Positions 119 through 17,449 of a stretch of DNA of 33,493 nucleotides are shown piece by piece. A model generated the notes under the pieces. The model was given only the letters and a program-made list of their open reading frames with translations. It was not told the DNA's origin and ran no database searches. Position 1 is the stretch's first letter. Each line of letters opens with the position of its first letter. The translations under genes and the position numbers were made by a program. This stretch comes from Moorena sp. SS36440bin_2 (lineage in GTDB: Bacteria > Cyanobacteriota > Cyanobacteriia > Cyanobacteriales > Coleofasciculaceae): assembly GCA_011524395.1 (NCBI GenBank), contig WTKN01000136.1, positions 1 through 33,493 on the forward strand, written 5' to 3'.

Positions 119-949
119 TTACATCTCAAGCAGCGCTATATCATTCTCTTTGTTGACCTGAATCAACTCAGCTACACCATCCCATAGAGCATAGCGTGCT
201 TTGAGAGCATTATCAGCAGAGTTGAAAGCTTGCTCCCACTTCACAGGATCATCACCACAAAGATTTTTTAAGAGTTTTTTACCCATCGGAACATGCTGAT
301 CCTCATCCAGAAAATTGTGCCTGTCTAGATACAGACGCAAAGAATCCCAAGTAAATCCATAGAGACTATCTAAAGTAGCAATTACCTGTCTGAACATAGC
401 AGGAATGATATCTTCTCGGCCTAGTAGAAAAGCTGCAGCTACTTCATGGGTTGACTTAGTCGTAGTTTCCAACGTGAATTTAACAAAGGTTTTGGTTAAT
501 TCAGGTATCGAAAGAGAGGCTATACTTTGCTCAGATGGAATACCTTTTCTAAGAGAAGATATAAACGTTTTAATTGGATTAATATCAGCCCCAATCTCTG
601 TCATCGCCACCATATAGAGATCATAGTGACTGATGTAATTTCCTGGTGAGACTTCATCAGTCTCTTCAGCTAAAACAATCTCATTGACCATCCTGGCAGA
701 ATTAATATCTGTCGGTGGCACCCAAGGTACATCCAAGCAAGTAACTCGGTGTTGAAGAGTCTTAATCAGAGACATGAAATCCCAAACAGCAAACACGTGA
801 GACTCCATAAATATCTGTAGAGATACCAAGTCATTTAACTGTTGGTAAAGCGGGTGATTGATCAGAGCCATACGGCTTGGTTTAAGTTGTTCTTCCAGCT
901 GAGCGTAATAGTCGAAACTCTTATAATTTTGCATTTCGATAATCTTCAT
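119..949 (-). CDS. DUF3050 family, heme-oxygenase-fold putative metal-dependent oxygenase
   Basis: I call a 276-aa protein from the ATG at 949, because AAGGAG lies six bases upstream. A longer reading to 1072 only translates intergenic tandem repeats. The sequence resembles the DUF3050 family, which has the all-helical heme-oxygenase-like fold shared with TenA, PqqC and diiron oxygenases such as SznF and UndA. Possible metal ligands by pattern are E49 and H51 in MESH, E95/E96, H108, and H211, D215 and H219 in HNFLDEDQH. This DxxxH helix is typical of diiron members. The gene has the same orientation as the aromatic locus, and its leader (AAGGAGAC) matches that of the O-methyltransferase at 5297. 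A repeat-rich gap of about 560 bp separates it from the hydroxylase gene, so cluster membership is plausible, not proven. Oxidation of an aryl amine would fit, but that is inference. Confidence 0.72.
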   Translation of the reverse strand: MKIIEMQNYKSFDYYAQLEEQLKPSRMALINHPLYQQLNDLVSLQIFMESHVFAVWDFMSLIKTLQHRVTCLDVPWVPPTDINSARMVNEIVLAEETDEVSPGNYISHYDLYMVAMTEIGADINPIKTFISSLRKGIPSEQSIASLSIPELTKTFVKFTLETTTKSTHEVAAAFLLGREDIIPAMFRQVIATLDSLYGFTWDSLRLYLDRHNFLDEDQHVPMGKKLLKNLCGDDPVKWEQAFNSADNALKARYALWDGVAELIQVNKENDIALLEM

Positions 950-1506
950 GATTGGTCTCCTTAATAACCTATAGAGTTGTTTAATTGTGTGAGGCACATT
1001 TTTTGAGGGAGCAGGGAGCAGGGAGCAGGGAACAGCGGATCTGGGAAGAGAGAAGAGATAATAGTGAGGCAATTCATCAAGACAGGAAAAAAATTATGTA
1101 TACCTCTCAGATAGGGCGGGAGCATGTCAAATTTGTAATTAGGTACATAGATCCCCCCTAACCCCCCAGGGCTGTTTCTTGCGTCGGACTCAAATGCGAT
1201 TGGTGGGGAGATAAGGAGATAAGGAGATAAGGAGATAGGGGGAATTTTTAGTCATCTCAAGGTATTGTTAACCTTAAAAAAACCTTCTCTCCATCACCCC
1301 ACCTGCCTTTCAACCGATTGAATTTACAATTTATTCATGAGCAATGTTACAGCCCTGCCCTAACCCCCCTTAAAAAAGGGGGGAATTAGATTGAAAAGTC
1401 CCCCTTATTAAGGGGAATTTAGGGGGATCTGAATCAGGGATTAAAAAAACTGACATGCACCCCTCCCTACTCCCTACTCCCTACTCCCTACTCCCTACTC
1501 CCTTTG
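950..1506. repeat. Repeat-rich gene-free spacer
   Basis: No gene is seen. The stretch holds tandem gggagca units at about 1009-1035, an 8-bp ggagataa array at about 1207-1240, and a palindromic block CCCCCCTTAAAAAAGGGGGG at 1364-1383 with a related C/G-rich hairpin just after it. A CTCCCTA-type array runs at about 1461-1503. None of the hairpins has a U tract in the direction of the minus-strand genes, so they are not good terminators. They look like the repeats found elsewhere between genes in this window. Confidence 0.8.
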
Positions 1507-2709
1507 CTAGATAATACCAACATAGTTTCTGGCAAAATCTCGGGCAAATGTAACCGATGTAGACAATTGCTTCAATTTCGATTCACTCAACTTATTGAAG
1601 AAACGGACATTGTCTACATCGTTGTCTTCAGACTTATGCAGCATATGCAACATCGAACAAGAAAATTCTTGAGCACGCCAAATATAGGGCAAACGAATTT
1701 CCGAGTAGCGTTTCAGGTAAGAAATATCCCGTTTTTCCTGGTAGTAACTTACCAATACTTCTCCGAGAACACCCGCATCCTGTACCGCCAGATTTAAACC
1801 TTTACCGCCACAAGGTGTAATAATGTGACCCGCATCACCAGCTATCAATAACCGTTGGTACTGTAACGGTTCCATAACATAACTGCGCATGGATAAAATC
1901 CGCTTGTCAAAGATTTCCCCTTCTTTCAAGGTCCATTCTTTTTTCGCCAGACGCTTTGCCAAAGTCGTCCAAATGCGTTGATCAGGCCAATTTTTAAGGT
2001 CATCATCAAGTGAAACTTGTAAATAATAACGCGAAATCTTGGCATTGCGCGGCATGTGAGCTCCAAAGCCATCATGATGCAAGCCATAGATGACATGTTT
2101 TGCAGAAGGTGGTGCGTAAGCTAAAACTGCCAGCCAGCCGTAGGGATGCTGTTTTGTGTAGAGGTCTACCGCTCCGTCTGGAATTGATTGGCGCGAGATT
2201 CCATGATAGCCATCACACCCTGCTACAAAATCAGCATGAATCGTGATGGTGGTGTCACCATCTTTATCGTAACACTCAACCATGACGCCGTCATCGGTTT
2301 GAGTAATTTTTTTCCCTTCATGGCGTAACAATAACTTACCACCTGCATCCAGATATCTTTGGATCAGATCGTCATTGAGATCGCTTTGGGGATAAATGTA
2401 ATGGACATCCCCATCAGCTAACTTTCCGTAATCAAAGACAACACTGTAATCAGGGTAACGAAATTCACAGGTATCATGGGTATAGCCATTTTGGAAAATT
2501 GTATCCGCTAGACCATGTTTTTTGAGTAGGTCAACTGTGGTGCTTTCCAGCACACCTGCCCGCGCCTTCGTATATATTTCTTCGCGGTTGTATCTATCCG
2601 CAATAATACAATCAATCCCATTTTGTAGAAGGATATTACCAACTACAATCCCAGCTGGACCTGAACCTAAAATACAAACTGATGTTTTCAATGCTGTACT
2701 ATTAGTCAT
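1507..2709 (-). CDS. PobA-type FAD-dependent aromatic hydroxylase
   Basis: This 400-aa protein is a class A flavoprotein monooxygenase closest in pattern to 4-hydroxybenzoate 3-hydroxylase. It has the dinucleotide fold GSGPAG at 15-20, the RAGVLE segment at 50-55, the DG motif CDGYHG at 165-170, the SRYYLQV strand near 226 that in PobA helps hold the substrate carboxylate, and the FAD-ribityl motif GDAGHIITP at 291-299 followed by GGKGLNLA. PobA has Thr after the Pro of this last motif; here it is Cys, so activity or substrate may differ. AGAGG lies upstream of the ATG. In this locus the natural guess is ring hydroxylation of a 3-amino-4-hydroxybenzoate-type acid, as CreL does in the cremeomycin pathway. 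The substrate is inference; the family is firm. Confidence 0.9.
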   Translation of the reverse strand: MTNSTALKTSVCILGSGPAGIVVGNILLQNGIDCIIADRYNREEIYTKARAGVLESTTVDLLKKHGLADTIFQNGYTHDTCEFRYPDYSVVFDYGKLADGDVHYIYPQSDLNDDLIQRYLDAGGKLLLRHEGKKITQTDDGVMVECYDKDGDTTITIHADFVAGCDGYHGISRQSIPDGAVDLYTKQHPYGWLAVLAYAPPSAKHVIYGLHHDGFGAHMPRNAKISRYYLQVSLDDDLKNWPDQRIWTTLAKRLAKKEWTLKEGEIFDKRILSMRSYVMEPLQYQRLLIAGDAGHIITPCGGKGLNLAVQDAGVLGEVLVSYYQEKRDISYLKRYSEIRLPYIWRAQEFSCSMLHMLHKSEDNDVDNVRFFNKLSESKLKQLSTSVTFARDFARNYVGII

Positions 2710-2922
2710 GGTTTAAGCTACCTCTTTAGTTAGAATTGAATAAAAGGAAAGTAAATTTTATTAACAAACACCCTCTGTAAGCAGTCAGCAGTCAGTAGTC
2801 AGCGTAAAATAAACTAGTTAATAGCACCATCTGTAGCGCATTAACTGATAGCTGTTCGCGAAGCGTGCGCGTAGCGCATTAGCTGTTCGCGTAGCGCTAA
2901 TCGCTGTTCGCTTAGACATCCT
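2710..2922. repeat. Gene-free spacer with GTTCGCGTAGCG-type repeats
   Basis: Between the hydroxylase and the AhpD-like gene there are agtcagc-type direct repeats at about 2778-2801. Four near-copies of the GCTGTTCGCG(T/A)AGCG repeat lie at about 2849-2913. The repeat is the same interspersed family seen inside tnpB and DUF4058 further right. No gene or clear promoter is seen. Confidence 0.75.
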
Positions 2923-3366
2923 CTAATAAGTACCTGGAATCATTTTTGTAGTAATAGCAATACGATTCCAAGCATTGATAGTCACAATAGCCATCAAAAG
3001 TTTAGCTATTTCGGTTTCTGAGAAATATCGACTTACCTCTTCATAAACTGAATTCGGTACCTGATTCTCTGAAATCATAGTCACTGCTTCAGTTAGCTCT
3101 AATACAGCCCGCTCTTCTGGACTAAAAAACGGCGTTTCTCGCCAAGCATTTAGGAGATAAATTCGTTGTTCTGTTTCTCCATTACTTCTGGCTTCTTTTG
3201 TATGCATATCGATACAAAATGCACATTTATTAAGTTGAGAAGCACGAACTTTTATCAACTTGATCAGTGTTTTATCTAAGCCACTTTTATTCACATAATT
3301 CTCCAAGGAATTCATGGCTAGATAAGCTGCTGGTTCAACTTTTTTGAGTTCCAATCTTGTTTCCAT
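2923..3366 (-). CDS. AhpD-like / carboxymuconolactone decarboxylase family protein
   Basis: This 147-aa all-helical protein has the redox motif CAFCIDMHTKEA at about 53-64, the CxxCxxxH signature of AhpD-like members of the carboxymuconolactone decarboxylase superfamily. Length and the spacing from LIKVRASQLNKCAFC to the C-terminal helix fit a single-domain member. Such proteins reduce peroxides or act as small thiol oxidoreductases. The ring-opening decarboxylase proper lacks CxxC, so a decarboxylase function is unlikely. It lies between the azoreductase-type gene and the hydroxylase, all on the minus strand, and may handle oxidised or quinoid intermediates of the locus, which is inference. 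No strong ribosome binding site is seen. Confidence 0.85.
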   Translation of the reverse strand: METRLELKKVEPAAYLAMNSLENYVNKSGLDKTLIKLIKVRASQLNKCAFCIDMHTKEARSNGETEQRIYLLNAWRETPFFSPEERAVLELTEAVTMISENQVPNSVYEEVSRYFSETEIAKLLMAIVTINAWNRIAITTKMIPGTY

Positions 3367-3533
3367 TTAAATACTCAACTAGTTGGTAAAATCACAAAAA
3401 TTGACGTTTTACTTGATTAAACTAATATTCATGTAAATTTCAGTCCGATCCACTTGTGAAAAAGCCGGTCTACCCTCCCCCCATCTCCCCATCTCCCCAT
3501 CAACCGACCTTTACAATTGAAATGCGTGAGAGC

Positions 3534-4160
3534 TTACCAAGTTTCTACTGCTTTCTCAAGCTCAGCACGGGCATTTTCCAAAGATTGCTGACGGGCTTCT
3601 TCCCCTAAATCTAGTTTCTCGGCATGAATAAACGTGATATCTGTAATGCCAAGCACTCCAAATATAGCCCGTAAAAAAGGTTCCTGATAATCGTAATCAG
3701 CACTAGGGGTTCCTGGAGAGAAACTACCGCCACGAGCTGTAAAAATTAGCATTTTTTTTTCCTTAGGAACTAAGCCCCGATATTGACCAGGTTCATCAAA
3801 GGTAAAGGTGCGATTGAATCGAACAATTTGATCGATATATGCTTTGAAGGTAGATGGAACATTGAAGTTGTACATGGGAATGCCGAAAACATAGCGATCG
3901 GCTGCTAGCAATTCATCCACCAAAGTATCTGATACTTTAATTTTCTCTACCAATTCAGGGGTGCGTTTTTCGGGAGGACAAAATGCTGCAGCAATCCACT
4001 TTTCATCAACATGGGGGACAGGATTATGACCTAAATCTCGATAGCTGACAGTGTCGTCTGGATAGAAAGACTTCCAAGTTTGAATAAACCGATTAGACAA
4101 TTCCCGAGAAATAGAGCGATCGCCACGGGGACTAGCATCAATGTGAAGAATATGGGTCAT
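3534..4160 (-). CDS. azoR: FMN-dependent NADH-azoreductase / quinone reductase (AcpD/AzoR family)
   Basis: This 208-aa flavodoxin-fold protein matches AzoR in length and motifs: the N-terminal FMN phosphate loop SPRGDRSISREL at 10-21, the MYNFNVPSTFKAYIDQI segment, and the FMN-contact loop ARGGSFSPG at about 143-151. AzoR enzymes use NADH to reduce quinones and azo bonds in the cytoplasm. The gene sits between the O-methyltransferase and the AhpD-like gene, so it could protect against, or reduce, a quinone, quinone-imine or azo/diazo intermediate made by the locus. That role is inferred from context. It could equally be a general quinone reductase. No clear Shine-Dalgarno sequence precedes the ATG. 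Confidence 0.9.
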   Translation of the reverse strand: MTHILHIDASPRGDRSISRELSNRFIQTWKSFYPDDTVSYRDLGHNPVPHVDEKWIAAAFCPPEKRTPELVEKIKVSDTLVDELLAADRYVFGIPMYNFNVPSTFKAYIDQIVRFNRTFTFDEPGQYRGLVPKEKKMLIFTARGGSFSPGTPSADYDYQEPFLRAIFGVLGITDITFIHAEKLDLGEEARQQSLENARAELEKAVETW

Positions 4161-4277
4161 AATTAAGTTAAAGGTTGTTTGCCTGTTTGGTTATTTGCCT
4201 TTGGCGTCCATTTTAGTAGGTTGTTTGTGATCACCTGCTAACCTGCTAACTTGATCGCCTGCTAACCTGTAATTGGA

Positions 4278-5297
4278 TTATTTGATGCCTACTGCCATTG
4301 AGTAAGCTCCTACAAGAGGTTTAGTGTAAGTGTCTTTGAATCCTACTTTTTCCATCCAAGCACAGCAGTCTGCTCCTGTGTAGTCGAAACCCCCAAAGGT
4401 CTCGATCAGCATATTGAGGCTCATGAGTAACCCAAACGTGTTCTGGCAGCGCTGATCGTCAATTAGTGCGTCGTAGACAATCAATGCCCCACCGGTCGGG
4501 AGTGCTTCGTAGGCTTTGGCAATTAACAGGTGCTTTTGTTCTAGATTCCAGTCATGGAGGATTTGTCCCATCACCAAAACATCAGCACTAGGCAGCATAT
4601 CCTGGAAAAAGTCACCACCATGGAAGTGTAATCGCTGGCTAAGTCCTCTGGAAGCAACATATTCCTCGTAAATTGGGCGAACCACTGGCAAGTCGAACCC
4701 ACCTCCATGTAAATGGTCGTGACTTAGGGCAACCGTTACTGGTAACTGCCCTTGAGCGGTACCGATATCGATAAAGGTCTGGAACTTCTCCCAGGGAAAT
4801 TTTTCAGCGATCGCCTTAGCGACTCCCATACTGACCCCAGACATCGCTTCCAGAAAGAGTTTTAGGCGGGCAGGGTCCTGGTAAAGGGTGCCGAAGAAGT
4901 CTTCTCCATTTTTGGCTTCATTCTGGGGTTGACCACTCCGTAACCCTTCTGTTAATGAACCCCAAAATCGATAGAGACGGGTGTTGTACATCTCTAGATA
5001 ACCACCGATATAGGAAGGCTTGGAGCGGTCAAGAAACAAATCACTTTCAGGAGTGTTAGTGTAAGCGTTATCATAATAATCTAACACTTTTAATGCAACT
5101 AGTGCATCCAAAAAATCTCGAGCACTACGGGGATGAAGTCCTAGTTTTTTAGTCAATTCAGCAGCAGTCATAGAACTCTGAGCCAATTCAGTAAATACTC
5201 CCATTTCCACTGCACTTAAGAATGTCTTAGATGCCGAGAAAGCAAACCCCAATTCCAGTAGTTTGTCCGGTACCAGCTGTTTAGTAACTGCTTCCAT
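4278..5297 (-). CDS. SAM-dependent O-methyltransferase (plant COMT / ASMT-like fold)
   Basis: This 339-aa protein has the two-part layout of small-molecule O-methyltransferases: a winged-helix dimerisation domain (about 1-100) and a Rossmann SAM domain. Motif I is IDIGTAQGQ at 176-184, a degenerate form of DxGGGxG. FDLP at 201-204 is the acidic SAM-ribose loop. The catalytic base is H248 in HDW, and E299 in LIETFGG matches the second catalytic position. AAGGAG lies eight bases before the ATG. Hydroxybenzoates and related phenols are common substrates of this family, so methylation of a hydroxyl added by the PobA-type enzyme is a reasonable guess, comparable to CreN in cremeomycin. The altered motif I is worth noting but should not abolish binding. 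Confidence 0.9.
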
Positions 5298-5358
5298 TGA
5301 CTAGTCTCCTTCTAGTTTTTTTGATTTATTACAAAATATTGAATGAATTATAAACAAT

Positions 5359-7056
5359 CTAAGACCTAACTGGAACTTTGGTTGACTGTGCATAAGCAAA
5401 ATCATGAAGCCCTTTACCCTCTAAGTTATGCTCAGCACAAATTAGGATATCTTGATATTGCTCGCGAAGCTTCCTTTTAAGGACTTTACCTGTTGACCCT
5501 ACAGGAAGATTACTGACGATTTCTAAGAAATACAAGGGTTCAAAGTTGTTATCCAATAGCTGTTGATTGATAGCATTAAGCAGAGCTGATGCTGTAATAT
5601 TTTCTGGGGCTTTAAGCTTGATAAAAGCCACTAAACCATCCAATTTTTTTTCCTTAGGGACACCAATTATTGTACAATCAGCAACAGCTGAGTTGCTCTT
5701 CAAAATTAATTCCTCAATGGGTAAGGTATTGACTAAGCCGCTAGCGCACTTAATCGCATCAACCGCACGATCCACGTGAAAAAATTTATTTTCCTGATCA
5801 TAATAAGCCAAATCCCCACTAATCCAGTACCCTTGTTTATAACTTTTGAGGGTGCGGTTAGAATCATTCCAATAGCCTGGTGTAATAGTTGGAGATTTAA
5901 TACCCAGGAAACCTACCTGATAGGGTGGCAGTAGATTTCCCTCCTCATCTAATACTACAGCTTTTACAAAACTGCGTGGCTTACCCATATATCGATTATA
6001 CAAGCTTGTCTGGCGACTAGAAACTTTATTAAACAAAGCCATGCCGAGTTCTGAGGCACCGAGACCATCAACAAAAACTGATTTATAATTCCCAGCATTT
6101 ACCAGAGTCTTGATATGAGCTTCATGGGCAGCATCTCCCGTATTAATCCACATTTTTACAGAACTCAATTGGTTTTTTTCTAAAGCCTGGGAAGCCATGT
6201 CGGCATAGGTTTGTGGAAAAGCTGCAACTATAGTAGGTTTAAGTTTTTTAGCTTGAGTAATAGCATTATTTCCAGATAAATCTGACAAAACCATAGTGTG
6301 TAAACCCAGTATAGTTACTGTCATAAAATAGCTAATTCCCGCCGAATGTGAACTAGGTAATGCAAACAAAAACTTATCGGATTGACTAGCTGGGAAATTT
6401 AGCAGTCGAATGCGTTTGCCAAAGAAAAACTGTTGATGGCCAAATATCACTGGCTTAGGCTTTCCAGTAGTACCAGAGGAATGACAGATCATAATTGGAT
6501 GAGAATCTGTAGGAGAATATGGATACCACTGGGGAAGCTCTATCTCTGAGCTTTGAACAGCTGTATGGTTGACATCTGTAGCAATAAACTTTAATGAGTC
6601 ATTAGTTTTGACGTAGCCACTAATACTATCGAGGTGCTTCTGATCAGAATATAAACCAATGGCACCAACACGACTGATAAAGTCAGCAGCAATATCAGCA
6701 TCCATACGACCGTTTACCAAAACTGGAATAGCACCGAGGTTGTTTAGTGCTAAGTAATGGATAAAGTAACCGATTCCATCGTCTAAATAGATAGCAACAG
6801 GATCATTCTCACGAATACCAGATTTCCTGTACCAAGAGGCATAGTTATCCACAACATCTTTTAAGGAAGATAAACTAAAACTGTTGATGGTCTCCCCTGT
6901 GAATGTTTTAAAAGGTTTTTCTAAAAATAAAAAATCATTGTTTCGATATGGGTTATTAGCAACAGAGTACTGAAGAAAGTTACCACATCCTAATGGCTTG
7001 GCAAGGAATAACTTAAGTCTTTGGTAGAATGGCAAAATAGTTGGGTTAATGTTCAT
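5359..7056 (-). CDS. AMP-forming acyl/aryl ligase (ANL superfamily)
   Basis: This 565-aa stand-alone adenylate-forming enzyme has core motif A3 HSSGTTGKPKP at 192-202, the GDLAYYD motif and a VDRAVDAIKCASG hinge region in the last third, and the C-terminal lysine motif PVGSTGKVLKRK. No carrier or reductase domain follows and no carrier protein is encoded next to it. It could make a CoA or amide of the benzoate product. Alternatively it could use ATP for another reaction, as the ligase-like CreM does in diazo formation, although no nitrite-forming CreD/CreE homologs are visible here. The hinge reads ASG where many ligases have xxG with a different context, so the substrate pocket cannot be read by eye. 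The locus lies 61 bp from the methyltransferase and shares its strand. Confidence 0.88.
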   Translation of the reverse strand: MNINPTILPFYQRLKLFLAKPLGCGNFLQYSVANNPYRNNDFLFLEKPFKTFTGETINSFSLSSLKDVVDNYASWYRKSGIRENDPVAIYLDDGIGYFIHYLALNNLGAIPVLVNGRMDADIAADFISRVGAIGLYSDQKHLDSISGYVKTNDSLKFIATDVNHTAVQSSEIELPQWYPYSPTDSHPIMICHSSGTTGKPKPVIFGHQQFFFGKRIRLLNFPASQSDKFLFALPSSHSAGISYFMTVTILGLHTMVLSDLSGNNAITQAKKLKPTIVAAFPQTYADMASQALEKNQLSSVKMWINTGDAAHEAHIKTLVNAGNYKSVFVDGLGASELGMALFNKVSSRQTSLYNRYMGKPRSFVKAVVLDEEGNLLPPYQVGFLGIKSPTITPGYWNDSNRTLKSYKQGYWISGDLAYYDQENKFFHVDRAVDAIKCASGLVNTLPIEELILKSNSAVADCTIIGVPKEKKLDGLVAFIKLKAPENITASALLNAINQQLLDNNFEPLYFLEIVSNLPVGSTGKVLKRKLREQYQDILICAEHNLEGKGLHDFAYAQSTKVPVRS

Positions 7057-7144
7057 GAGGTTAAATCCAAAATCGTGTCGAAATATAATTGATACTACCT
7101 AACAGATAATGTAATGGCGATAATCCCAATTTTTTTTTGACAAT

Positions 7145-7423
7145 TCAAATCAAATTTGCAAGTTCACTATCAGACAAAATAATCTCACCATAATCGGGAA
7201 TCCAAGCTAGCCAGGTATTTTCAGATTTACGACCTAAAATAAGAGCTTCTTCACAATGAATCGAGTTAGGGATATCAGGGGCTTTAACCCAAATTTTAGA
7301 GTCGGATTCTGCCTCAAGGTTACTGGAGTTAGTCTCAATGGATTTGTCTTTAAAACCTAAGGTCGATTCAGTCTGCCTATTTGGTTGTTGCTGATAGTCA
7401 TTTAAGCTAAGTAATTTACTCAT
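7145..7423 (-). CDS. Small hypothetical protein, 92 aa, inside aromatic locus
   Basis: I do not recognise this protein. It starts at an ATG with GAGGGG about eight bases upstream, so expression is plausible. The first half is polar and Ser/Asn/Gln-rich and looks disordered. The second half (about 45-92) has a compact hydrophobic pattern including ALILGR, WLAWIPDYG and IILSDSELANLI, which could form a small beta-rich domain. It has no carrier-protein serine motif (no DSL in a GGxS/DSx context), no signal peptide, no membrane helix and no cysteine pair. It lies between the ligase and the dehydroquinate-synthase-like gene, on the same strand. A leader-like N-terminus and an acidic tail might suggest a precursor or chaperone, but there is no maturase nearby. 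Confidence 0.6.
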   Translation of the reverse strand: MSKLLSLNDYQQQPNRQTESTLGFKDKSIETNSSNLEAESDSKIWVKAPDIPNSIHCEEALILGRKSENTWLAWIPDYGEIILSDSELANLI

Positions 7424-7475
7424 TCTTAAATCCCCTCTTACTTGCTAATACATGTTGACTGTTTCTAAGGAAGTG

Positions 7476-7550
7476 ATATCATGTCCGGTTGTGGGTGATA
7501 GTGTTATTTGTCGTTGTTTCTTTGGTAATCGATACTCCCGGACATGATAT
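7476..7550. other. 13-bp perfect inverted repeat around a 49-nt spacer
   Basis: ATATCATGTCCGG at 7476-7488 and its exact complement at 7538-7550 flank a 49-nt spacer. The right arm ends three bases before the stop codon of the dehydroquinate-synthase-like gene, so on the minus strand the structure lies directly behind that gene and upstream of the 92-aa gene. No U tract follows, so it is a poor intrinsic terminator. It may be an RNA hairpin that protects or processes the aldolase-synthase message, or a short mobile relic. Confidence 0.7.
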
Positions 7551-7553
7551 TAT

Positions 7554-8666
7554 TTACTTTTCCAGACAAGACTCTTTCACTGGAAGCCCAACATGGCGTC
7601 CACTGGGCGCAGTATGACCAAGCAGCTTATCCCCAGGCTTCAATTCTGTGACATTCAGGACTTTACCACCAGGTCCAAGAACTCTTACATGCCAATCGTC
7701 TTGGACAATCACATTTACCGGAATTCCCGATTGAGACACTGCATCGATACTGAGTAGGGGACGAACTTCTATCTTCATCCTTCCTACAACTATTTCTCGT
7801 GCCTTGCCATCACAATTTACCCCTAATACTTTGTGTCCTGAACTCAGCTCACTAAGATAATTAGTTTGACTAACACTAGACACTAAATAAGAATGTATAG
7901 CACCAGCATTGACTCGGAAAGGACGAGTTGGCATGTAGGGCAGTGGATGGGTCTCGCTGCTAACTAAAATCATTCCTTGGGAATAAGAACCAATGAGTAT
8001 ACCTTCATCTTTGGCAAAGTTAGAACAAGTATCTACACAAGCCCGTTCTCCCATGCCAATATGGGAAATTTTTGTTACTTCAAGTTCTTCCAGTGAAACT
8101 TCCAAATTGTTGGCCTTACGACACAGTTGCCCAAGCTCTCTGGCATCGATAATCCCGTTAGGGGTTAGCATGACCCCATGTGACCCTTTTTCTAAGACCC
8201 CCAGGACAATTTCTGCTTCCTCAATATCTTTGACAACGGTAATTATTTGTCCATCCGTGTTGTCTGCTGAGGCTAAAACGATCTCCAGAGGAATTTTTGT
8301 GGGGTCTTTAAAATAGATGACAGCCCATTTTTCTTGTCTAGCTATCTTACAAGCAGTTTGTAATGTTTCGTCGTCGATAACATGAATAAAAAAACCAATT
8401 TCTGCTTGAGATTTGTAGGTTTCTGGTTCAGTAGTTATTTCAGAATACCAGGAATGATCAAACAGTACTATGTCGGCCTTGTCGAGACATCCTTCTGCTT
8501 CTTCTGGGCTGTCTACAAAAGCAATGCGAGAGACAGAGTCATGACAATCCATGACTGGACTTGATGAATCAACCACCACTCCATTGATATCAGAATTTAG
8601 AGATCCACACAGCGCTTTATAGTCAACATCATTAAAGCTTCTTAGGTCTAACCAAGATAATTTCAT
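7554..8666 (-). CDS. Type II 3-dehydroquinate synthase-like protein (GriH type)
   Basis: This 370-aa protein matches the archaeal-type dehydroquinate synthase II family across its length. Motifs are FKDPTKIPLE near 119-128, VLEKGSHGVML at 157-167, GMGERACVDTCS at 204-215, GILIGSYSQGMILVSSE at 222-238 and RPFRVNAGAIHSY at 248-260. In archaea the family uses NAD to turn amino-dideoxy-heptulosonate into dehydroquinate. In Streptomyces the homolog GriH turns a C7 aldol product into 3-amino-4-hydroxybenzoate. Cyanobacteria normally use AroB for the shikimate pathway, so a copy here, coupled to an aldolase and next to tailoring genes, points to the GriH role. The ATG shares its A with the TAA of the aldolase gene, implying translational coupling. 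Family is certain; product assignment is inference. Confidence 0.93.
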   Translation of the reverse strand: MKLSWLDLRSFNDVDYKALCGSLNSDINGVVVDSSSPVMDCHDSVSRIAFVDSPEEAEGCLDKADIVLFDHSWYSEITTEPETYKSQAEIGFFIHVIDDETLQTACKIARQEKWAVIYFKDPTKIPLEIVLASADNTDGQIITVVKDIEEAEIVLGVLEKGSHGVMLTPNGIIDARELGQLCRKANNLEVSLEELEVTKISHIGMGERACVDTCSNFAKDEGILIGSYSQGMILVSSETHPLPYMPTRPFRVNAGAIHSYLVSSVSQTNYLSELSSGHKVLGVNCDGKAREIVVGRMKIEVRPLLSIDAVSQSGIPVNVIVQDDWHVRVLGPGGKVLNVTELKPGDKLLGHTAPSGRHVGLPVKESCLEK

Positions 8667-9454
8667 TACGCTACCTCCTTGATAGTAAATTGATAGGGAT
8701 TAGTGATAACTTTGGCAATTTCTTGAGAAATGAATGAGGGATTACTGTGTTGAAATATATTTCTACCAACAGCAACACCTTTACCGCCAGCCCTGATGGC
8801 ATCTTTGATCATCGATAAGATCGAGTTATCTGCATCGCTCTTTGCTCCTCCGGCAACGATAACGGGGATGTCAACGGCATTAACAACTTGTCTGAAGGAT
8901 TGAACATCGCCAGTGTAGTTGACCTTGACAATATCTGCTCCTAGCTCCCAGGCCAATCTGGTTGAGTGAGCGATCGCATCTGTATCGTACTCATTTTTAA
9001 TCTTCTCTCCTCGTGCATAAACCATTGCTAGCAATGGCATACCCCATTGATGACAGGCTGCTGAGATTTCGCTGAAATCTTTGAGCATACGGTATTCATC
9101 GTTTGCCCCAAGATTAACGTGAATTGAAACTCCATCTGCACCAAGCTTAATGGCTTGTTCAACACTACTGACTAGATGTTTGGAAGATGGATCGGGAGAT
9201 AGGCTGGTTGATCCAGAAAGATGCAAAATTAACGATATATCTTTCTGAATTAAACCTGGATGGATTGCCCGAGCTATCCCTTGATGAGCAACAATTGCAC
9301 TAATGGTTTTCTCCGGTAACGATCTGATAAATTGATGAACTTTTGCCAGACCACTAACCGGACCTAGTGTAAACCCATGGTCAATTGGGACTATAAAATA
9401 GTTGTCTAATCCTTTGAGAATTCTTGCCAAACGATAATTTTTACCAAGAGACAT
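8666..9454 (-). CDS. Class I aldolase of ADH-synthase / GriI type
   Basis: This 262-aa TIM-barrel aldolase belongs to the archaeal FBP-aldolase/ADH-synthase (DhnA) family. It has PIDHG at 23-27, the catalytic Tyr146 in VYARGE, the Schiff-base Lys177 in DIVKVNY (spaced 31 residues from the Tyr, as in MJ0400), the phosphate loop AGGAK at 201-205 and GRNIFQ at 230-235. GriI of Streptomyces condenses aspartate semialdehyde with dihydroxyacetone phosphate, the first step to 3-amino-4-hydroxybenzoate. AAAAGGAG precedes the ATG. This is the first gene of the minus-strand series, so the promoter should lie in the repeat-rich region to its right. A simple fructose-bisphosphate aldolase is the alternative, but the coupled dehydroquinate-synthase-like gene argues against it. 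Confidence 0.93.
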   Translation of the reverse strand: MSLGKNYRLARILKGLDNYFIVPIDHGFTLGPVSGLAKVHQFIRSLPEKTISAIVAHQGIARAIHPGLIQKDISLILHLSGSTSLSPDPSSKHLVSSVEQAIKLGADGVSIHVNLGANDEYRMLKDFSEISAACHQWGMPLLAMVYARGEKIKNEYDTDAIAHSTRLAWELGADIVKVNYTGDVQSFRQVVNAVDIPVIVAGGAKSDADNSILSMIKDAIRAGGKGVAVGRNIFQHSNPSFISQEIAKVITNPYQFTIKEVA

Positions 9455-10198: not shown

Positions 10199-13100
10199 AT
10201 GATGAATTCCGTGCGAGCATCTGAATCAGGACTTAAATTAGTAGACCAAGCTAGACGTCAGAAAAGATGGAACAAAACAGCGGTAGCTTGGTATACCAGT
10301 GCATTTACATCTAAGGCAACCTTAAACCGGTTTTGGAGGAGACACTCAATTCGTACTGACACCTTCATGGCCATTTGTGGCGCTGTAGGTGTTGATTGGG
10401 AAAAGGTAGTTGAGCCGGATGAGATTGAGATAGATCAGATGGAGCTAGCAGCCCTATCGAGAACTGCTCTGGCTGGAATTGGACATCTTGATTGGGGTGG
10501 AGCTCCAGAACCGAGGAGTTTCTACGGTCGGATGCAGGAACTGAACACCCTACAGCAATGGATTCTACAGGACAACTGCTGCCTGGTGGCACTTCTAGGG
10601 ATGGGGGGAATTGGGAAAACTACCTTGGCTGTGAAGTTAGCCCATCTGCTACAGGATAAATTTGAGTTTGTGATTTGGCGCAGTCTACGCAATGCTCCGC
10701 CCCTAGAGGAAGTCCTGGCAGACATGATTCAATTTCTGTCTGTGCAGCAGGAAACGAATTTACCTTCCTCTGTGGATGGCAAAATTTTGCGATTGATTCA
10801 GTATTTACAGACGGCGCGTTGCCTGCTAGTTCTTGATAATACCGAATCGATCCTCGAAAGTGGTTCTCGCACCGGTGGCTATCGAGAGGGATATGCTGGA
10901 TACGGTGAGCTACTCAGAACTATTGGGGAAACTTCCCACAATAGCTGCCTAGTGATGACCTCCCGGGAGGCACCTCAAGACTTGACCATTCTGGAGGGGG
11001 AAGCCTTACCCGTTCGCTGCTTCCCACTCAAAGGTTTACCAGAAACCCATGGACAGGAAATATTTAAGGAAAAGGGCAATTTTATTGGGGATGACACCCA
11101 ATGGATGACCCTAATTGAGCGTTATGCCGGAAATCCTTTAGCCTTAAAGATGGTAGCCTGTGCAGTCAGAGACTTTTTTGATAGCAATATTGCTCAGTTT
11201 CTGGATTTTTTAAAGGAAGGCTCATTCATTTTTGGTGATATTCGGGATTTACTAGATTGGCACTTTCAGCGCCTTACCTCCACAGAAAAGGAACTGATGT
11301 ACTGGCTAGCTATCAATCGGGAACCTATTTCTCTTGAAGAACTGCAAGAAGACTTTGTCTGCTACCTATGCGCTACGGATATTTTAGAAGCTGTAGGGTC
11401 TCTACAACGGCGGTCATTGATTGAGAAAACTTCAACTAGGTTTACCCAACAACCTGTAGTCATGGAATACATGATTAATCGACTCATCGAGCAGATTCCT
11501 GAAGAGATTATTAGTCAAAATATCGCTATCTTCCGCACTCACGCCCTAGTCAAAGCCAGCGCCCCTGACTATGTTCGGGATGCTCAAGTCTGTCTGATTA
11601 TCGAACCGATTATTGAGAAATTACTCTCTAGTTTTGGTTCTACAAAACAGCTGGAAAATCATCTGCTGGAAATCCTCTCAATGCTGCGCGCCCCGACTCC
11701 TGGGGTTAAAAAATCTACTCTCCAGATGGGATATGTCAGTGGTAATACTATTAATTTACTTAGTCAATTACAGATTAATTTAAACGGCTATGACTTTTCG
11801 GGTCTGACAGTTTGGCAAGCCAACCTACAGGGACTGACATTACACAATGTCAATTTCGCTGGCTGTGATTTCGCTGGCTCAGTGTTTACTGAAACCCTAG
11901 GGAATATGTTATCGGCAGCATTTAGTCCAGATGGGAGGATTTTGGCAATCTGTGATACAAATTTTGAGATTCGCCTATGGGATGTGCAAACTGGTAAACT
12001 ACTGGTCATCTGTGAGGGTCACACTAATGGGGTACGCTCTGTTGCGTTTAGTGGGGATGGTAAAACCTTAGCCAGTAGTAGTGCTGACCATACCGTAAAG
12101 TTATGGCAAGTCAGTGATGGCAGCTGCTTGCAAACTTGTAGTGGACATACTGATGAAGTGTTCTCAGTTGCTTTTAATCCTCAAGGTAATACCCTGATTA
12201 GTGGTAGTAGCGACCACACTGTCAGACTCTGGGATGGTGACACGGGTCAATGCCTTAACAGGTTTAGTGGACATAGTGGTTGTGTGAGATCAGTGGCTTT
12301 TAGTACTGATGGCAACACCCTAGCCAGTGGCAGTGATGACCACACTGTCAGACTCTGGGATGCTAGGACTGGTAGTTGGGTTAGAACTTATACTGGACAT
12401 ACCAGTGGAGTACGCTCAGTTGCTTTTAGCACTAACGGCAACACCCTAGCCAGTGGCAGTAATGACCACACCGTCAGACTCTGGGATGCTAGGACTGGTA
12501 TCTGTGTTAGTACTCACACCGGACATAGTAGTGGAGTCTACTCAGTGGCTTTTAGCACTGACGGCAAAACTCTAGCTACTGGTAGTGGCGACCATACTGT
12601 CAGGTTATGGGATTACCACACTGGTATTTGCCTGAAAACCTTGCATGGACATACTAATCAGATCTTTTCTGTGGCGTTTAGCCCTCAAGGTAACACCCTA
12701 GTCTGTGTGAGTTTAGATCAAACTGTCAGACTTTGGGATTGGGGCACTGGTCAATGCTTGAAAACTTGGCAGGGAAGTACTGATTGGGTATTTCCAGTGG
12801 CTTTCAGTCCTGATGGTAAAACCTTGGCTAGTGGTAGTAACGACCATACAGTCAGACTATGGGATTATAATAGCGATCGCTGTATCAGTATTTTGCACGG
12901 ACATACTGCTCACGTGTGTTCAGTGGCCTTTAGTAGTGACGGTCAAACCGTAGCTAGTAGCAGTAGAGACGAAACCATCAGGCTGTGGGATATCAAGACG
13001 GGAGAATGCTTAAAGATTTTGCACGGACATACTGATTGGATCTATTCCGTCACTTTCAGCAGTGATGGGAAAACCCTAGCTAGTGGCAGTGCTGACCAAA

Positions 13101-13750
13101 CGGTGAGGCTTTGGGATCAGCGTACTGGTCACTGCGTCAGCACTTTGGAAGGACATACTAATCAGATCTGGTCAGTGGCTTTCAGTAGTGATGGTAAAAC
13201 CTTGGCGAGTAGCAATACAGACCAAATGGTGAGGCTGTGGGATGTCAGCACAGGGGAATGCTTGAAAACGTTACAGGGACATGGTAATCGGGTCAAATCA
13301 GTGGCTTTCAGTCCTAAGGATACTATCCTGGCCAGTTGTAGTACAGACGAAACAATACGCCTCTGGGATTTGAGTACGGGTGAATGCTCTAAACTATTAC
13401 GCGGACACAACAATTGGGTCTTTTCCGTGGCATTCAGTCCTGATGGCAAAACTATCGCTAGCGCCTCTAACGACCAAACTGTCAAGGTGTGGGATCTTTC
13501 GACAGGGGAATGCCGCCACACTTGCATCGGACATACCCATCTAATCTCTTCTGTTGCCTTTAGTCGGGATGGTCAAATTATTGCTAGTGGCTCTCAAGAC
13601 CAAACGGTGAGGCTTTGGGACACTAAGACCGGGAAGTGCCTGAAAATTCTCAGAGCTCCGAGACTCTACGAAGCCATGAATATTACTGGAGTAACAGGAT
13701 TAACTGAGGCACAGAAAGCAACTCTGAAACAGTTGGGTGCGATCGCGTAG
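10199..13750 (+). CDS. STAND NTPase: HTH-like N-terminus, NB-ARC, pentapeptide-like linker and 14 WD40 repeats
   Basis: The 1183-aa protein begins with a helix-turn-helix-like segment (about 10-75) common in cyanobacterial proteins of this class. An NB-ARC NTPase follows, with P-loop GMGGIGKT at 134-141, Walker B LLVLDN at 209-214, the MTSRE sensor near 253 and the AGNPLALK motif. A helical stretch and a short pentapeptide-like part (LQGLTLHNVNFAGCDF, about 541-556) lead into 14 WD40 repeats of 42 aa (567-1154), enough for two seven-bladed propellers. The C-terminal tail is about 30 residues. STAND proteins are ATP switches that sense a ligand with their repeats and oligomerise. Relatives include apoptotic ATPases and antiphage Avs proteins. 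No effector nuclease or protease domain is seen here, so the output is unknown. No good Shine-Dalgarno sequence precedes the tandem ATG ATG. Confidence 0.92.
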   Translation: MMNSVRASESGLKLVDQARRQKRWNKTAVAWYTSAFTSKATLNRFWRRHSIRTDTFMAICGAVGVDWEKVVEPDEIEIDQMELAALSRTALAGIGHLDWGGAPEPRSFYGRMQELNTLQQWILQDNCCLVALLGMGGIGKTTLAVKLAHLLQDKFEFVIWRSLRNAPPLEEVLADMIQFLSVQQETNLPSSVDGKILRLIQYLQTARCLLVLDNTESILESGSRTGGYREGYAGYGELLRTIGETSHNSCLVMTSREAPQDLTILEGEALPVRCFPLKGLPETHGQEIFKEKGNFIGDDTQWMTLIERYAGNPLALKMVACAVRDFFDSNIAQFLDFLKEGSFIFGDIRDLLDWHFQRLTSTEKELMYWLAINREPISLEELQEDFVCYLCATDILEAVGSLQRRSLIEKTSTRFTQQPVVMEYMINRLIEQIPEEIISQNIAIFRTHALVKASAPDYVRDAQVCLIIEPIIEKLLSSFGSTKQLENHLLEILSMLRAPTPGVKKSTLQMGYVSGNTINLLSQLQINLNGYDFSGLTVWQANLQGLTLHNVNFAGCDFAGSVFTETLGNMLSAAFSPDGRILAICDTNFEIRLWDVQTGKLLVICEGHTNGVRSVAFSGDGKTLASSSADHTVKLWQVSDGSCLQTCSGHTDEVFSVAFNPQGNTLISGSSDHTVRLWDGDTGQCLNRFSGHSGCVRSVAFSTDGNTLASGSDDHTVRLWDARTGSWVRTYTGHTSGVRSVAFSTNGNTLASGSNDHTVRLWDARTGICVSTHTGHSSGVYSVAFSTDGKTLATGSGDHTVRLWDYHTGICLKTLHGHTNQIFSVAFSPQGNTLVCVSLDQTVRLWDWGTGQCLKTWQGSTDWVFPVAFSPDGKTLASGSNDHTVRLWDYNSDRCISILHGHTAHVCSVAFSSDGQTVASSSRDETIRLWDIKTGECLKILHGHTDWIYSVTFSSDGKTLASGSADQTVRLWDQRTGHCVSTLEGHTNQIWSVAFSSDGKTLASSNTDQMVRLWDVSTGECLKTLQGHGNRVKSVAFSPKDTILASCSTDETIRLWDLSTGECSKLLRGHNNWVFSVAFSPDGKTIASASNDQTVKVWDLSTGECRHTCIGHTHLISSVAFSRDGQIIASGSQDQTVRLWDTKTGKCLKILRAPRLYEAMNITGVTGLTEAQKATLKQLGAIA
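11897..13660 (+). repeat. 126-bp coding repeat array (14 WD40 units)
   Basis: Fourteen units of 42 codons encode WD40 blades with the pattern SVAFSxDGxTLASGSxDxTVRLWDxxTGxCLxxxxGH. Neighbouring units are very alike at the DNA level. For example, units 4 and 5 share about 64 nt (around 12311 and 12434) with two differences, so recent duplication or gene conversion is likely. Units 1 and 7 are the most diverged. Confidence 0.9.
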
Positions 13751-14311: not shown

Positions 14312-15727
14312 ATGTATCGAACAATTCCACTAAAAGCGACATTTACAGACGAAGAAAATGCGTTTTGGTTGTTCCAATGCGAACAATCTAATAGCTTGTG
14401 GAATTGTGCCACTTATTACTCCAAACAAAAACAATACAGTTGGTTGCAGGAACAGCCAGAAGCATTTACTACTTATTGGCGTGGTGACGAGTTGCGGTAT
14501 GGTTGGAAAACTTATAAGTGTGCTATAAAATACGCTGAATTATGCAAAAAACTTAAAAACAACCCTCATTTCAAGGCTATGGCGGCTCAGTCAGCGCAAC
14601 AAACACTCAAGACTGTGGCCGAATCAATTGCTAGCTATAATCAATTAGTGGGCTTATATTATAAAGGCCAGGCAGACAGACCAAGACTCCTTAGATATCG
14701 CCAAAAAGGTGGTCTAGCTGCTGTTACTTTCCCTCGACAGGCTCTCACTTACAAAAAAGGTTTGTTTTATCCGTCAATCAGCAAAGAGACCAAGCCTGAA
14801 TTATTAACTGAAATTACTTTGACCCCTCCGGACTTTGTAGATCCAGATTGGGTAAAAGAGGTGACTGTTCGCCCGTACCTGGGGCAGTTGTGGATTGATT
14901 GGGTAATTGATGATGGTAAAGAGCCAGTCGAAACCAACCCTGACCTTGATTATTCCCAAGCTTGGAGTTTCGATCATGGCGGAGACAACTGGCTGACCGG
15001 GGTCTCGACCCATGGGAAAAGTCTGATTATTGACGGTCGCAAGCTCAAATCAATGAACCAGGGATATGCCCGATTGGTAGCCAAGTATAAGGCCGGTAAG
15101 CCCGAGTTCTACTGGGACGCGAACCTTGATCGTGTTCAACGGAAACGCAACAACCAGATGCGAGACGGCATTAACAAAGCAACTAGATTTATTATCAATC
15201 GTTGTCTAAGCGATTCGGCAAAGCCGACGCTACGCGAACGCATCGGAAATCTGATTATAGGCTGGAACGAACGGCAAAAGGATTCAGCAAATATGGGGCG
15301 ACGAGGTAATCAAAACTTCGTGACTATCCCCACAAAAAGACTAATTGAAAGACTAAAACAGCTTTGCCCAGAGTATGGAATCAAGTTAACAATTACCGAA
15401 GAAGCATATACCAGCAAGGCGTCTTTCTTAGATGAGGATTCATTACCAAGACACGGTGAAAAACCCAGTGGATGGAAGCCCTCAGGTAGAAGAGTAAGAC
15501 GTGGATTGTACAAAACTGCCAAAGGATATCTGGTTAACGCGGACTGCAACGGTGCCGCAAATATTGCCAGAAAAGTAGCCGCACAGTTAAGTCTTGACTT
15601 AACCAAGGTGGGTAGCGGGAGCTTGACACTCCCACATCGGTACGACGTTTTCAACTCTCTGAAAAAATTATACCGAACAAGAGGTGAAGTGGCACGGGAA
15701 AACCGCTGCCACGTAACATCATTGTAG
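14312..15727 (+). CDS. tnpB: TnpB-family RNA-guided nuclease homolog, variant active site, no zinc finger
   Basis: This 471-aa protein belongs to the IS1341/TnpB lineage. The RuvC-I Asp is in SFDHGGDNWL (about 223), and the RuvC-III Asp is in NADCNGAANI (about 408). At the usual RuvC-II place (normally a Glu in a VxxEDL string) it reads NLIIGWNERQKD, while a later TITEEAYTSKASFLD offers an alternative Glu, as described for TnpB/Fanzor groups with a rearranged site. No CxxC zinc-ribbon pairs are present before RuvC-III. Around residue 303-310 the string SDSAKPTLRE is encoded by an in-frame interspersed repeat (15210-15241). A TATAAT box lies 24 bp before the ATG. The stop codon falls just before the right-end hairpin. 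The frame is open throughout, but whether it still cuts DNA is uncertain. Confidence 0.85.
   Translation: MYRTIPLKATFTDEENAFWLFQCEQSNSLWNCATYYSKQKQYSWLQEQPEAFTTYWRGDELRYGWKTYKCAIKYAELCKKLKNNPHFKAMAAQSAQQTLKTVAESIASYNQLVGLYYKGQADRPRLLRYRQKGGLAAVTFPRQALTYKKGLFYPSISKETKPELLTEITLTPPDFVDPDWVKEVTVRPYLGQLWIDWVIDDGKEPVETNPDLDYSQAWSFDHGGDNWLTGVSTHGKSLIIDGRKLKSMNQGYARLVAKYKAGKPEFYWDANLDRVQRKRNNQMRDGINKATRFIINRCLSDSAKPTLRERIGNLIIGWNERQKDSANMGRRGNQNFVTIPTKRLIERLKQLCPEYGIKLTITEEAYTSKASFLDEDSLPRHGEKPSGWKPSGRRVRRGLYKTAKGYLVNADCNGAANIARKVAAQLSLDLTKVGSGSLTLPHRYDVFNSLKKLYRTRGEVARENRCHVTSL
15210..15241 (+). repeat. Palindromic repeat inserted in frame in tnpB
   Basis: The 32-bp segment begins GCGATTCGGCAAAGCCGACG and ends GCGAACGC, with an internal hairpin TCGGC/GCCGA. 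It closely resembles the 32-bp copy at 20146-20177, which has the same length and ends. Removing about 30 bp gives the family-like protein string NRCL-RIGNLIIGW. Confidence 0.75.
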
Positions 15728-15760
15728 AATCCCCCGTGCTTCAGCCAGGGGAGATGTCAA

Positions 15761-15842
15761 ATCGAGGTTAAAGATGTAGCAACTAAGGAAGTTGTGACAG
15801 CGATTGAAGTTATCTCCCCTGCCAATAAACGAGGAGAAGGGC
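15761..15842 (+). pseudogene. DUF4058 gene, middle piece
   Basis: These 82 bases between the two insertion elements encode IEVKDVATKEVVTAIEVISP and then ANKRGEG, the most conserved core of DUF4058. The frame runs directly from 14169 and on to 17618 (C plus GT gives one Arg codon). Confidence 0.92.
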
Positions 15843-15858
15843 TTGACACTCCCCATAG

Positions 15859-16310: not shown

Positions 16311-16356
16311 CCAGATCGTTAGACCGGATTACGCAACGTGCCGGAGATGAAACCTG

Positions 16357-16433: not shown

Positions 16434-16464
16434 TGCGGTAACTTCGTTCCCAGTCTCTTGGCAT

Positions 16465-17448: not shown

Positions 17449-17449
17449 T

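What the first reader, a model, noticed from the sequence alone, without database searches (positions are those of the whole stretch)
119..9454. Aminohydroxybenzoate-type biosynthetic locus in a cyanobacterium with an unusual tailoring set
A GriI-type aldolase and GriH-type dehydroquinate synthase II, translationally coupled (TAATG), head a minus-strand series of ligase, O-methyltransferase, azoreductase, AhpD-like, PobA-like hydroxylase and DUF3050 genes. In actinobacteria the pair makes 3-amino-4-hydroxybenzoate (grixazone, asukamycin, cremeomycin). The combination hydroxylase + O-methyltransferase + ligase mirrors CreL/CreN/CreM of the diazo compound cremeomycin, but nitrite-forming CreD/CreE are not in the window. 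An azoreductase and a putative diiron oxygenase are added, which may mean another nitrogen oxidation route (nitroso, nitro or quinone-imine). I know of no described cyanobacterial product of this kind.
Basis: partly seen in the sequence, partly recalled or inferred. Interest (0 to 1): 0.85.

Follow-up and report, generated by a model that had tools for sequence, protein, structure and literature searches.

The report
Cyanobacterial aminohydroxybenzoate–diazotization gene cluster
A marine cyanobacterium (genus Moorena) carries genes that probably build a small aromatic amine and then use nitrite to turn it into a reactive diazo compound, a chemistry so far described mainly from soil actinobacteria.

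Summary
In detail: the eight named genes are on the minus strand at 119-9454, GriI/GriH overlapping as TAATG, plus a missed 92-aa ORF. The host is Moorena. DHQS II is very rare in cyanobacteria (1 of 386 sampled genomes) but was found in 4 of 4 Moorena genomes sampled and in one Brasilonema. AroB is also present, so the pair is no shikimate substitute. New: the 'ligase' falls among nitrite-using ANL diazotases (CreM/AvaA6/Tri17 type). Nitrosuccinate lyase (CreD) was not found in 4 Moorena and 1 Brasilonema genomes; a nitrate-assimilation locus with NirA exists. Best reading: a cremeomycin-like route, 3,4-AHBA, hydroxylation/methylation and nitrite-dependent diazotization, nitrite coming from nitrate assimilation. 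AhpD-PobA-DUF3050 may be a separate unit. DUF3050 keeps the residues expected for a diiron site and lies near diazotases in one actinobacterial clade; a nitrogen-supplying role is possible but weakly supported. No product or activity was tested. New variant of a known kind.

The parts
8666..9454 (-). GriI-type aldolase (2-amino-3,7-dideoxy-hept-6-ulosonate synthase family), 262 aa
   Evidence: PF01791 1.4e-59; TIGR01949 318 bits over cut-off 299; MJ0400 structure match 8.9e-76
7554..8666 (-). GriH-type 3-dehydroquinate synthase II family protein, 370 aa, overlapping GriI by one base
   Evidence: PF01959 3.7e-107; BagC_FevH 416 bits, below its cut-off 750; clade with actinobacterial proteins
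7145..7423 (-). ORF92, small protein without known family, C-terminal core ENxWLAWIPDYGEI
   Evidence: no Pfam, NCBIfam or PDB match; 84-91% in three other Moorena copies, 36% in Brasilonema upstream of the diazotase; AF2 poor (pLDDT 55)
5359..7056 (-). ANL-superfamily diazotase-like protein (CreM/AvaA6/Tri17 type), 565 aa
   Evidence: NF058622 405 bits against 217 for the next family, cut-off 975 not met; Tri17 structure 1e-79, then a gap to 6e-28; tree and motif
4278..5297 (-). SAM-dependent O-methyltransferase, 339 aa
   Evidence: PF00891 3.4e-31, PF08100 1.5e-14
3534..4160 (-). FMN-dependent NADH azoreductase/quinone reductase family, 208 aa
   Evidence: PF02525 3.2e-49; in all Moorena copies that cover the place
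2923..3366 (-). AhpD-like/CMD family protein, 147 aa
   Evidence: PF02627 4.2e-21; TIGR00778 61 bits, cut-off 28
1507..2709 (-). PobA-subfamily flavin hydroxylase, 400 aa
   Evidence: PRK08243 409 bits over cut-off 351; PobA equivalog TIGR02360 330 bits, under cut-off 539
119..949 (-). DUF3050 heme-oxygenase-like protein with the residues expected for a diiron site, 276 aa
   Evidence: PF11251 1.1e-87; E96, H108, E179, H211, D215, H219 invariant in 9 of 9 DUF3050 rows aligned
10199..13750 (+). WD40-repeat protein, divergent; lies with GriI-to-AzoR also in the M. bouillonii assembly; link to the pathway unknown
   Evidence: Pfam WD40; synteny

Best explanation
A cremeomycin-like biosynthetic locus. 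GriI and GriH make 3-amino-4-hydroxybenzoate (3,4-AHBA) from a C3 sugar phosphate and aspartate semialdehyde (inferred from family). A PobA-type hydroxylase and an O-methyltransferase decorate the ring (inferred). The ANL protein activates nitrite with ATP and converts the aromatic amine to a diazo group (inferred from family and tree). Nitrite comes from nitrate assimilation (narB-like gene, nirA and a narK-family transporter are in the genome) rather than from CreD/CreE (CreD was not found in the genomes; CreE was sought only in the stretches read). Azoreductase, AhpD and DUF3050 act in later redox steps or protection (guess).
For: Diazotase family: NF058622 405 bits, higher than the 357 bits of a Streptomyces homologue whose locus also holds a protein scoring 789 to nitrosuccinate lyase (cut-off 650). 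In the PDB the best hits are 9xb8, 8ztz and Tri17 (8tf7/9bq0, so named in a passage of PMC11705231), E 4e-97 to 1e-79; the next is anthranilate-CoA ligase at 6e-28. 27 diazotase-like proteins including Tri17 separate from two other AMP-binding proteins of the same loci at 100/100; the motif GDxxHxxHI, picked after looking, is in 23 of 27 and 0 of 2. GriH clades with actinobacterial proteins. AroB present. GriI, GriH, the diazotase and ORF92 are kept together, in another order, in Brasilonema. 72 of 134 ava-related clusters lack the CreD/CreE homologues (passage of PMC10777205).
Against: No activity or product shown. The NF058622 (975) and NF041224 (750) cut-offs are not met. The hydroxylase is only 21% identical to the flavin monooxygenase, and the methyltransferase 22% to the methyltransferase, of the CreD/E-type Streptomyces plasmid locus, so these steps seem to be recruited separately. 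In M. bouillonii the PobA gene is 4.3 Mb from the diazotase, though a run of N and repeats at the junctions leave misassembly open. GriI does not group clearly with actinobacterial GriI. 4 of the 27 diazotase-like proteins lack the motif.
Confidence: 0.65

Rival explanations
1. The ANL protein is an ordinary aryl ligase (CoA, AMP or carrier protein), and the product is an AHBA ester, amide or phenoxazinone without an N-N bond.
For: General ANL models also match (PRK06187 217 bits). In crx, deletion of the CreM homologue blocks two products that contain no diazo group (passages of PMC11429834).
Against: Sequence gap between diazotases and ligases in the PDB list and the tree; no carrier protein or PKS/NRPS gene in the nine-gene locus.
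Confidence: 0.15
2. GriI-to-AzoR and AhpD-PobA-DUF3050 are two unrelated units that only lie side by side; the product comes from the first unit alone. (This can hold together with diazotization.)
For: In M. bouillonii the two units are 4.3 Mb apart, with breakpoints between AzoR and AhpD and after the WD40 gene, while AhpD-PobA-DUF3050 stays beside aspartate kinase. PobA, AhpD, OMT and AzoR gave no hit in the 21 kb read around the Brasilonema GriH. Gaps of 167, 213 and 557 bp separate the last genes (coordinates, DUF3050 taken from 949).
Against: Adjacent in three of four Moorena genomes and both present in all four; the M. bouillonii junctions carry repeats, a TnpB-like gene (by eye) and a run of N.
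Confidence: 0.35
3. The pair is an archaeal-type dehydroquinate route for the shikimate pathway.
For: Both proteins also match the archaeal-type families.
Against: A full AroB (406 bits, cut-off 305) is in the same genome; 385 of 386 sampled cyanobacteria gave no DHQS II match; GriH sits with actinobacterial proteins.
Confidence: 0.03
4. DUF3050 supplies the nitrosating nitrogen (nitrite or an equivalent) to the diazotase in place of CreD/CreE.
For: Expected diiron ligands kept. MgoB is DUF3050 (passage of PMC3298696); HamA of the homologous ham cluster is proposed for the N-N step of fragin, with the distal nitrogen's source unsettled (passages). DUF3050 lies within 10 kb of 8 of 14 actinobacterial diazotase genes, and a CreD and CreE query found nothing in those 8 contexts. 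The Brasilonema locus carries another heme-oxygenase-like protein and a cupin.
Against: The eight loci are one clade, and the two scanned share a PhyH/HPPD-like block (L085, L158), so probably one event. At genome level CreD is not missing from those genomes: G406 has one over the cut-off, and the other seven have weaker matches of 264-414 bits, under the cut-off, which may or may not be CreD. In G410 a broken PF00206 gene lies about 9 kb from the diazotase; it gave no match to the CreD query. DUF3050 is away from the diazotase in M. bouillonii and Brasilonema. An mgoB mutant still makes mangotoxin.
Confidence: 0.12

Closest known systems
Cremeomycin (cre) cluster, Streptomyces cremeus
   Same: AHBA pair, ring hydroxylase, O-methyltransferase, ANL diazotase (CreM, CreN, CreH, CreI, CreD, CreE from passages of PMC11705231 and PMC11429834; CreL as hydroxylase is recalled)
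   Different: No CreD found; PobA-type hydroxylase; azoreductase, AhpD, DUF3050 and ORF92 added; cyanobacterial host
ava/cma clusters (avenalumic and p-coumaric acid)
   Same: 3,4-AHBA synthases and a diazotase of the same family; 72 of 134 related clusters lack CreD/E homologues (PMC10777205 passages)
   Different: No PKS gene and no epimerase/SDR-family gene among the nine here
Tri17 (triacsin), PDB 8tf7/9bq0
   Same: ATP- and nitrite-using ANL enzyme (PMC11705231 passages); shares motif and clade
   Different: Native substrate is a hydrazone
ham/mgo/pvf diazeniumdiolate operons
   Same: DUF3050 heme-oxygenase-like protein (MgoB; HamA as its counterpart)
   Different: NRPS and AurF-type N-oxygenase there; no diazotase described in the passages seen
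crx cluster, Streptomyces sp. CS057
   Same: CreH/CreI, CreM, CreN homologues
   Different: NRPS and CrxD/CrxE present; described products (acetamido-hydroxybenzoate, crexazone 2, texazone) have no diazo group (PMC11429834 passages)

Membership tests
3,4-AHBA synthase pair (GriI/GriH) | adjacent DhnA-type aldolase and DHQS II genes | tested here: met
3,4-AHBA synthase pair (GriI/GriH) | GriH groups with AHBA-type rather than other DHQS II proteins | tested here: met
   12-row clade with 8 actinobacterial rows, 100/100. The actinobacterial rows are unnamed functions; the Rhodococcus one scores 627 to BagC_FevH, also under the 750 cut-off. No archaeal or named GriH rows were available
3,4-AHBA synthase pair (GriI/GriH) | GriI groups with actinobacterial GriI | tested here: inconclusive
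   own clade, nearest non-cyanobacterial rows by path are Bacillota
3,4-AHBA synthase pair (GriI/GriH) | NF041224 BagC/FevH cut-off (750 bits) | tested here: not met
   416 bits
3,4-AHBA synthase pair (GriI/GriH) | makes 3,4-AHBA | not testable with these tools
   needs enzyme assay
ANL diazotase (CreM/AvaA6/Tri17) | groups with known or CreD/E-linked diazotases apart from other AMP-binding proteins | tested here: met
   one row (Tri17) is characterised in print, and only two outgroup rows were used
ANL diazotase (CreM/AvaA6/Tri17) | NF058622 AvaA6 equivalog cut-off (975 bits) | tested here: not met
   405 bits; a CreD/E-linked homologue also fails with 357. So not an AvaA6 orthologue
ANL diazotase (CreM/AvaA6/Tri17) | ATP- and nitrite-dependent diazotization | not testable with these tools
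   needs assay
cremeomycin-type cluster | nitrosuccinate lyase CreD in the genome | tested here: not met
   0 of 4 Moorena, 0 of 1 Brasilonema at 1e-55. Of 14 PF00206 matches in these five genomes four were scanned: fumC, argH, purB, purB
cremeomycin-type cluster | nitrosuccinate synthase CreE | tested here: inconclusive
   no tblastn match at 1e-3 in the window or in the Moorena and Brasilonema stretches read; no genome-wide CreE search was made
cremeomycin-type cluster | hydroxylase and O-methyltransferase homologous to those of a CreD/E-type locus | tested here: inconclusive
   detectable but low, 21% and 22% identity
PobA (4-hydroxybenzoate 3-monooxygenase) | TIGR02360 equivalog cut-off | tested here: not met
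   330 of 539 bits; wider subfamily PRK08243 met
DUF3050 / heme-oxygenase-like diiron proteins | six metal ligands | tested here: met
   invariant in 9 of 9 DUF3050 rows; assigned by spacing to the ligands named in a passage of PMC4520260. Metal binding itself not tested

The most novel reading that the evidence does not exclude
A DUF3050 diiron enzyme is a second, unrecognised source of the nitrosating nitrogen for ANL diazotases, replacing the CreD/CreE pathway in cyanobacteria and in a clade of actinobacterial clusters, and doing the same unknown job in diazeniumdiolate operons (ham/mgo/pvf).
Probability: 0.12. Interest if true: 0.85.

Novelty: new variant of a known kind. Interest (0 to 1): 0.6.

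Why it matters
If true, enzymatic aryl diazotization is not confined to actinobacteria and can run on nitrite from ordinary nitrate assimilation. A photosynthetic organism would make a diazo compound, a class that includes light-sensitive members such as cremeomycin, and nitrogen labelling of Moorena cultures becomes a direct test. No paper among those listed by the searches appears, from title and abstract start, to describe such a cyanobacterial cluster.

Tried and rejected
Tasikamides were recalled by me as cyanobacterial; the passages show a Streptomyces source. An archaeal shikimate role was rejected. Exclusivity of DUF3050 and CreD/E holds within about 10 kb (0 of 21 contexts with both: 14 actinobacterial and 7 of the 19 plasmid hits; no CreD or CreE in the cyanobacterial stretches either), but not at genome level (G406), and the eight actinobacterial DUF3050 loci are one clade. 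ORF92 structure prediction was too poor to use. Naive ORF calling in GC-rich loci was misleading and was replaced by a codon-position method. An 'island' reading of the M. bouillonii rearrangement was downgraded because of repeats and a run of N at a junction. The actinobacterial survey found only 5 of 396 genomes with a diazotase, one of them already known, only three candidates per genome being scored; the cyanobacterial diazotase survey has the same limit.
Full report
Observation. The window is the first 33,493 bases of a 50,211-base contig. Relatives at 98% identity of GriH are Moorena genomes. The minus strand carries, from 9454 down to 119: GriI-type aldolase, GriH-type DHQS II, a 92-aa ORF, an ANL ligase-like protein, O-methyltransferase, azoreductase, AhpD-like, PobA-subfamily hydroxylase and DUF3050. 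GriI and GriH overlap by one base, TAATG.

Distribution. DHQS II was found in 1 of 386 sampled cyanobacterial genomes, the window's own, and GriH in 4 of 20 genomes of the family, all four of them of the window's genus. A scan of genome contigs gave 55 related loci; four are cyanobacterial (three Moorena, one Brasilonema), and the window's own record may be left out there. The diazotase-like gene was found in 1 of 386 sampled cyanobacteria, only three candidates per genome being scored. All nine genes are collinear in three Moorena genomes (G000, G398, G399). Brasilonema keeps GriI (65%), GriH (63%), the diazotase (72%) and ORF92 (36-38%) in another order, with a halogenase-like flavoprotein (PF04820; CmlS model under its cut-off), a heme-oxygenase-like protein (PF14518 over, DUF3050 just under its cut-off) and a cupin; PobA, OMT, AzoR and AhpD gave no hit in the 21 kb read.

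The pair. TIGR01949 is met by GriI (318 against 299). GriH scores 416 to BagC/FevH (cut-off 750), 467 to the general DHQS II subfamily model (cut-off 375, met) and 185-252 to the other DHQS II models. In a 32-row tree GriH forms a 12-row clade with eight actinobacterial proteins at 100/100, apart from the Bacillota proteins; the cyanobacterial GriI forms its own clade and its place is unresolved. No archaeal and no named GriH/NspH/CreH sequences were in these trees. In the alignment with MJ0400, the Asp, Tyr and Lys that I recall as catalytic are kept. A PF01761 protein of AroB strength is in all five genomes searched; the window genome's copy, the only one of these best copies scanned, scores 406 bits to AroB (cut-off 305). 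So the pair is best read as a 3,4-AHBA synthase.

The ligase looks like a diazotase. Its best NCBIfam model is AvaA6, 3-aminoavenalumate diazotase (405 bits; next family 217), although the equivalog cut-off of 975 is not met. A Streptomyces plasmid homologue, whose locus also holds a protein scoring 789 to nitrosuccinate lyase (cut-off 650), scores less, 357. PDB hits fall in two groups: 9xb8, 8ztz and Tri17 (8tf7, 9bq0) at 4e-97 to 1e-79, then other ligases from 6e-28; that 8tf7/9bq0 are Tri17 comes from a passage of PMC11705231, and what 9xb8 and 8ztz are is not known to me. In a tree, 27 such proteins separate from two other AMP-binding proteins at 100/100, and the five cyanobacterial proteins are one clade. 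GDxxHxxHI, a motif chosen after looking, is in 23 of 27 and in 0 of 2. It is the only match to the model in the genome at 1e-20.

Nitrite. Nitrosuccinate lyase (NF052556) gave no match at 1e-55 in four Moorena and one Brasilonema genome, while 13 of 19 genomes searched had one, 2 of them over the cut-off. Of 14 PF00206 matches in the five cyanobacterial genomes, four were scanned and are fumC, argH, purB and purB (G000 itself showed two matches, where the others show three). CreE gave no match in the stretches read and was not searched genome-wide. NirA (921 bits, cut-off 594), a NarK-family transporter (406, cut-off 312) and a molybdopterin protein consistent with NarB (best models Fdh-alpha 548 and NasC 526, both under cut-off) lie on one contig. 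A passage of PMC10777205 says that 72 of 134 ava-related clusters lack the CreD/E homologues, and a passage of PMC11705231 tells of alanosine clusters without them where nitrate and nitrite reductases are suspected.

Tailoring. The hydroxylase passes the PobA subfamily model but fails the PobA equivalog. It is 31% identical to a PobA-like protein next to a diazotase-family gene on a Leisingera plasmid, and 21% to the flavin monooxygenase of the CreD/E-type Streptomyces locus. The OMT is 22% identical to the Streptomyces one. Similar steps therefore seem to have been recruited separately.

One unit or two. In M. bouillonii, AhpD-PobA-DUF3050 (93-97%) lies beside aspartate kinase as in the two other Moorena genomes read there, but the block from AzoR to the WD40 gene is 4.3 Mb away. 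The junctions carry short repeats and a TnpB-like gene (by eye), and one carries a run of N, so misassembly cannot be excluded.

DUF3050. The six expected metal ligands are invariant in 9 of 9 DUF3050 rows, assigned by spacing to positions named in a passage of PMC4520260. MgoB is a DUF3050 protein (PMC3298696 passages), and HamA of the homologous ham cluster is proposed for the N-N step of fragin (PMC11705231, PMC11659414, PMC5878181 passages). DUF3050 lies within 10 kb of 8 of 14 actinobacterial diazotase genes; CreD and CreE lie near 1 of 14 and near 2 of the 7 plasmid loci fetched (of 19 hits); no locus has both. Against a functional link: the eight form one clade, the two scanned share an HPPD-like/PhyH block, one of these genomes has a nitrosuccinate lyase over the cut-off elsewhere and the other seven have weaker matches of 264-414 bits, a broken PF00206 gene lies about 9 kb from the diazotase in G410 but does not match the CreD query, and DUF3050 is unlinked in M. 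bouillonii and Brasilonema. Since a lyase beside CreE and a diazotase in G454 itself scores only 533, a score under the cut-off does not exclude CreD.

Literature. Searches for AHBA, diazo, CreM, cremeomycin, grixazone and Moorea terms gave 4, 8, 15 and 0 papers; none appears from title and abstract start to describe such a cyanobacterial cluster (listings only). Most subscription papers are not held. The papers cited were seen as passages only.

Verdict. A real, rare and coherent locus whose most likely chemistry is nitrite-dependent diazotization of a 3,4-AHBA-derived ring. It works like cremeomycin biosynthesis, but is not a member of that cluster type as defined, since CreD was not found. 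Confidence 0.65; no biochemical proof.

Noticed in passing
L163 4732-10665 (Klebsiella michiganensis plasmid NZ_CP048110.1): DHQS II, ADH synthase, epimerase-like protein, MFS transporter and a diazotase-family protein in a row; a CreD and CreE query found nothing within 9 kb.
   Followed up: partly
L166 9001-15259 (Sinorhizobium medicae plasmid NZ_CP140892.1): Diazotase-family gene with DHQS II and a DeoC-family aldolase, near a SagB-type dehydrogenase and a phosphopantetheinyl transferase.
   Followed up: partly
L080-L085, L087, L158: Actinobacterial loci with a diazotase-family gene and DUF3050; in those looked at more closely also HPPD-like, PhyH and transketolase-like dehydrogenase genes, possibly an unexplored cluster.
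   Followed up: partly
window 7467-7488 and 7538-7559: 22-nt inverted repeat (86%) between GriH and ORF92; the gap there differs by about 100 bp between Moorena genomes.
   Followed up: no
L064 7909-16980, L155 10731-18252: Aspartate kinase, IsiA/Pcb-like and flavodoxin-like genes (named by eye) follow DUF3050 in Moorena; aspartate kinase leads to the aspartate semialdehyde that GriI would use (recalled), but is probably housekeeping.
   Followed up: no
L005 13600-15876: N,N-dimethylformamidase-like large protein with a laminin-G-like domain downstream of the Brasilonema cluster.
   Followed up: no
window 14312-22570: OrfB/TnpB-type genes at 14312 (weak, under cut-off), 16493 and 21338, and a GmrSD/Schlafen-type protein at 18130-19935.
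   Followed up: no
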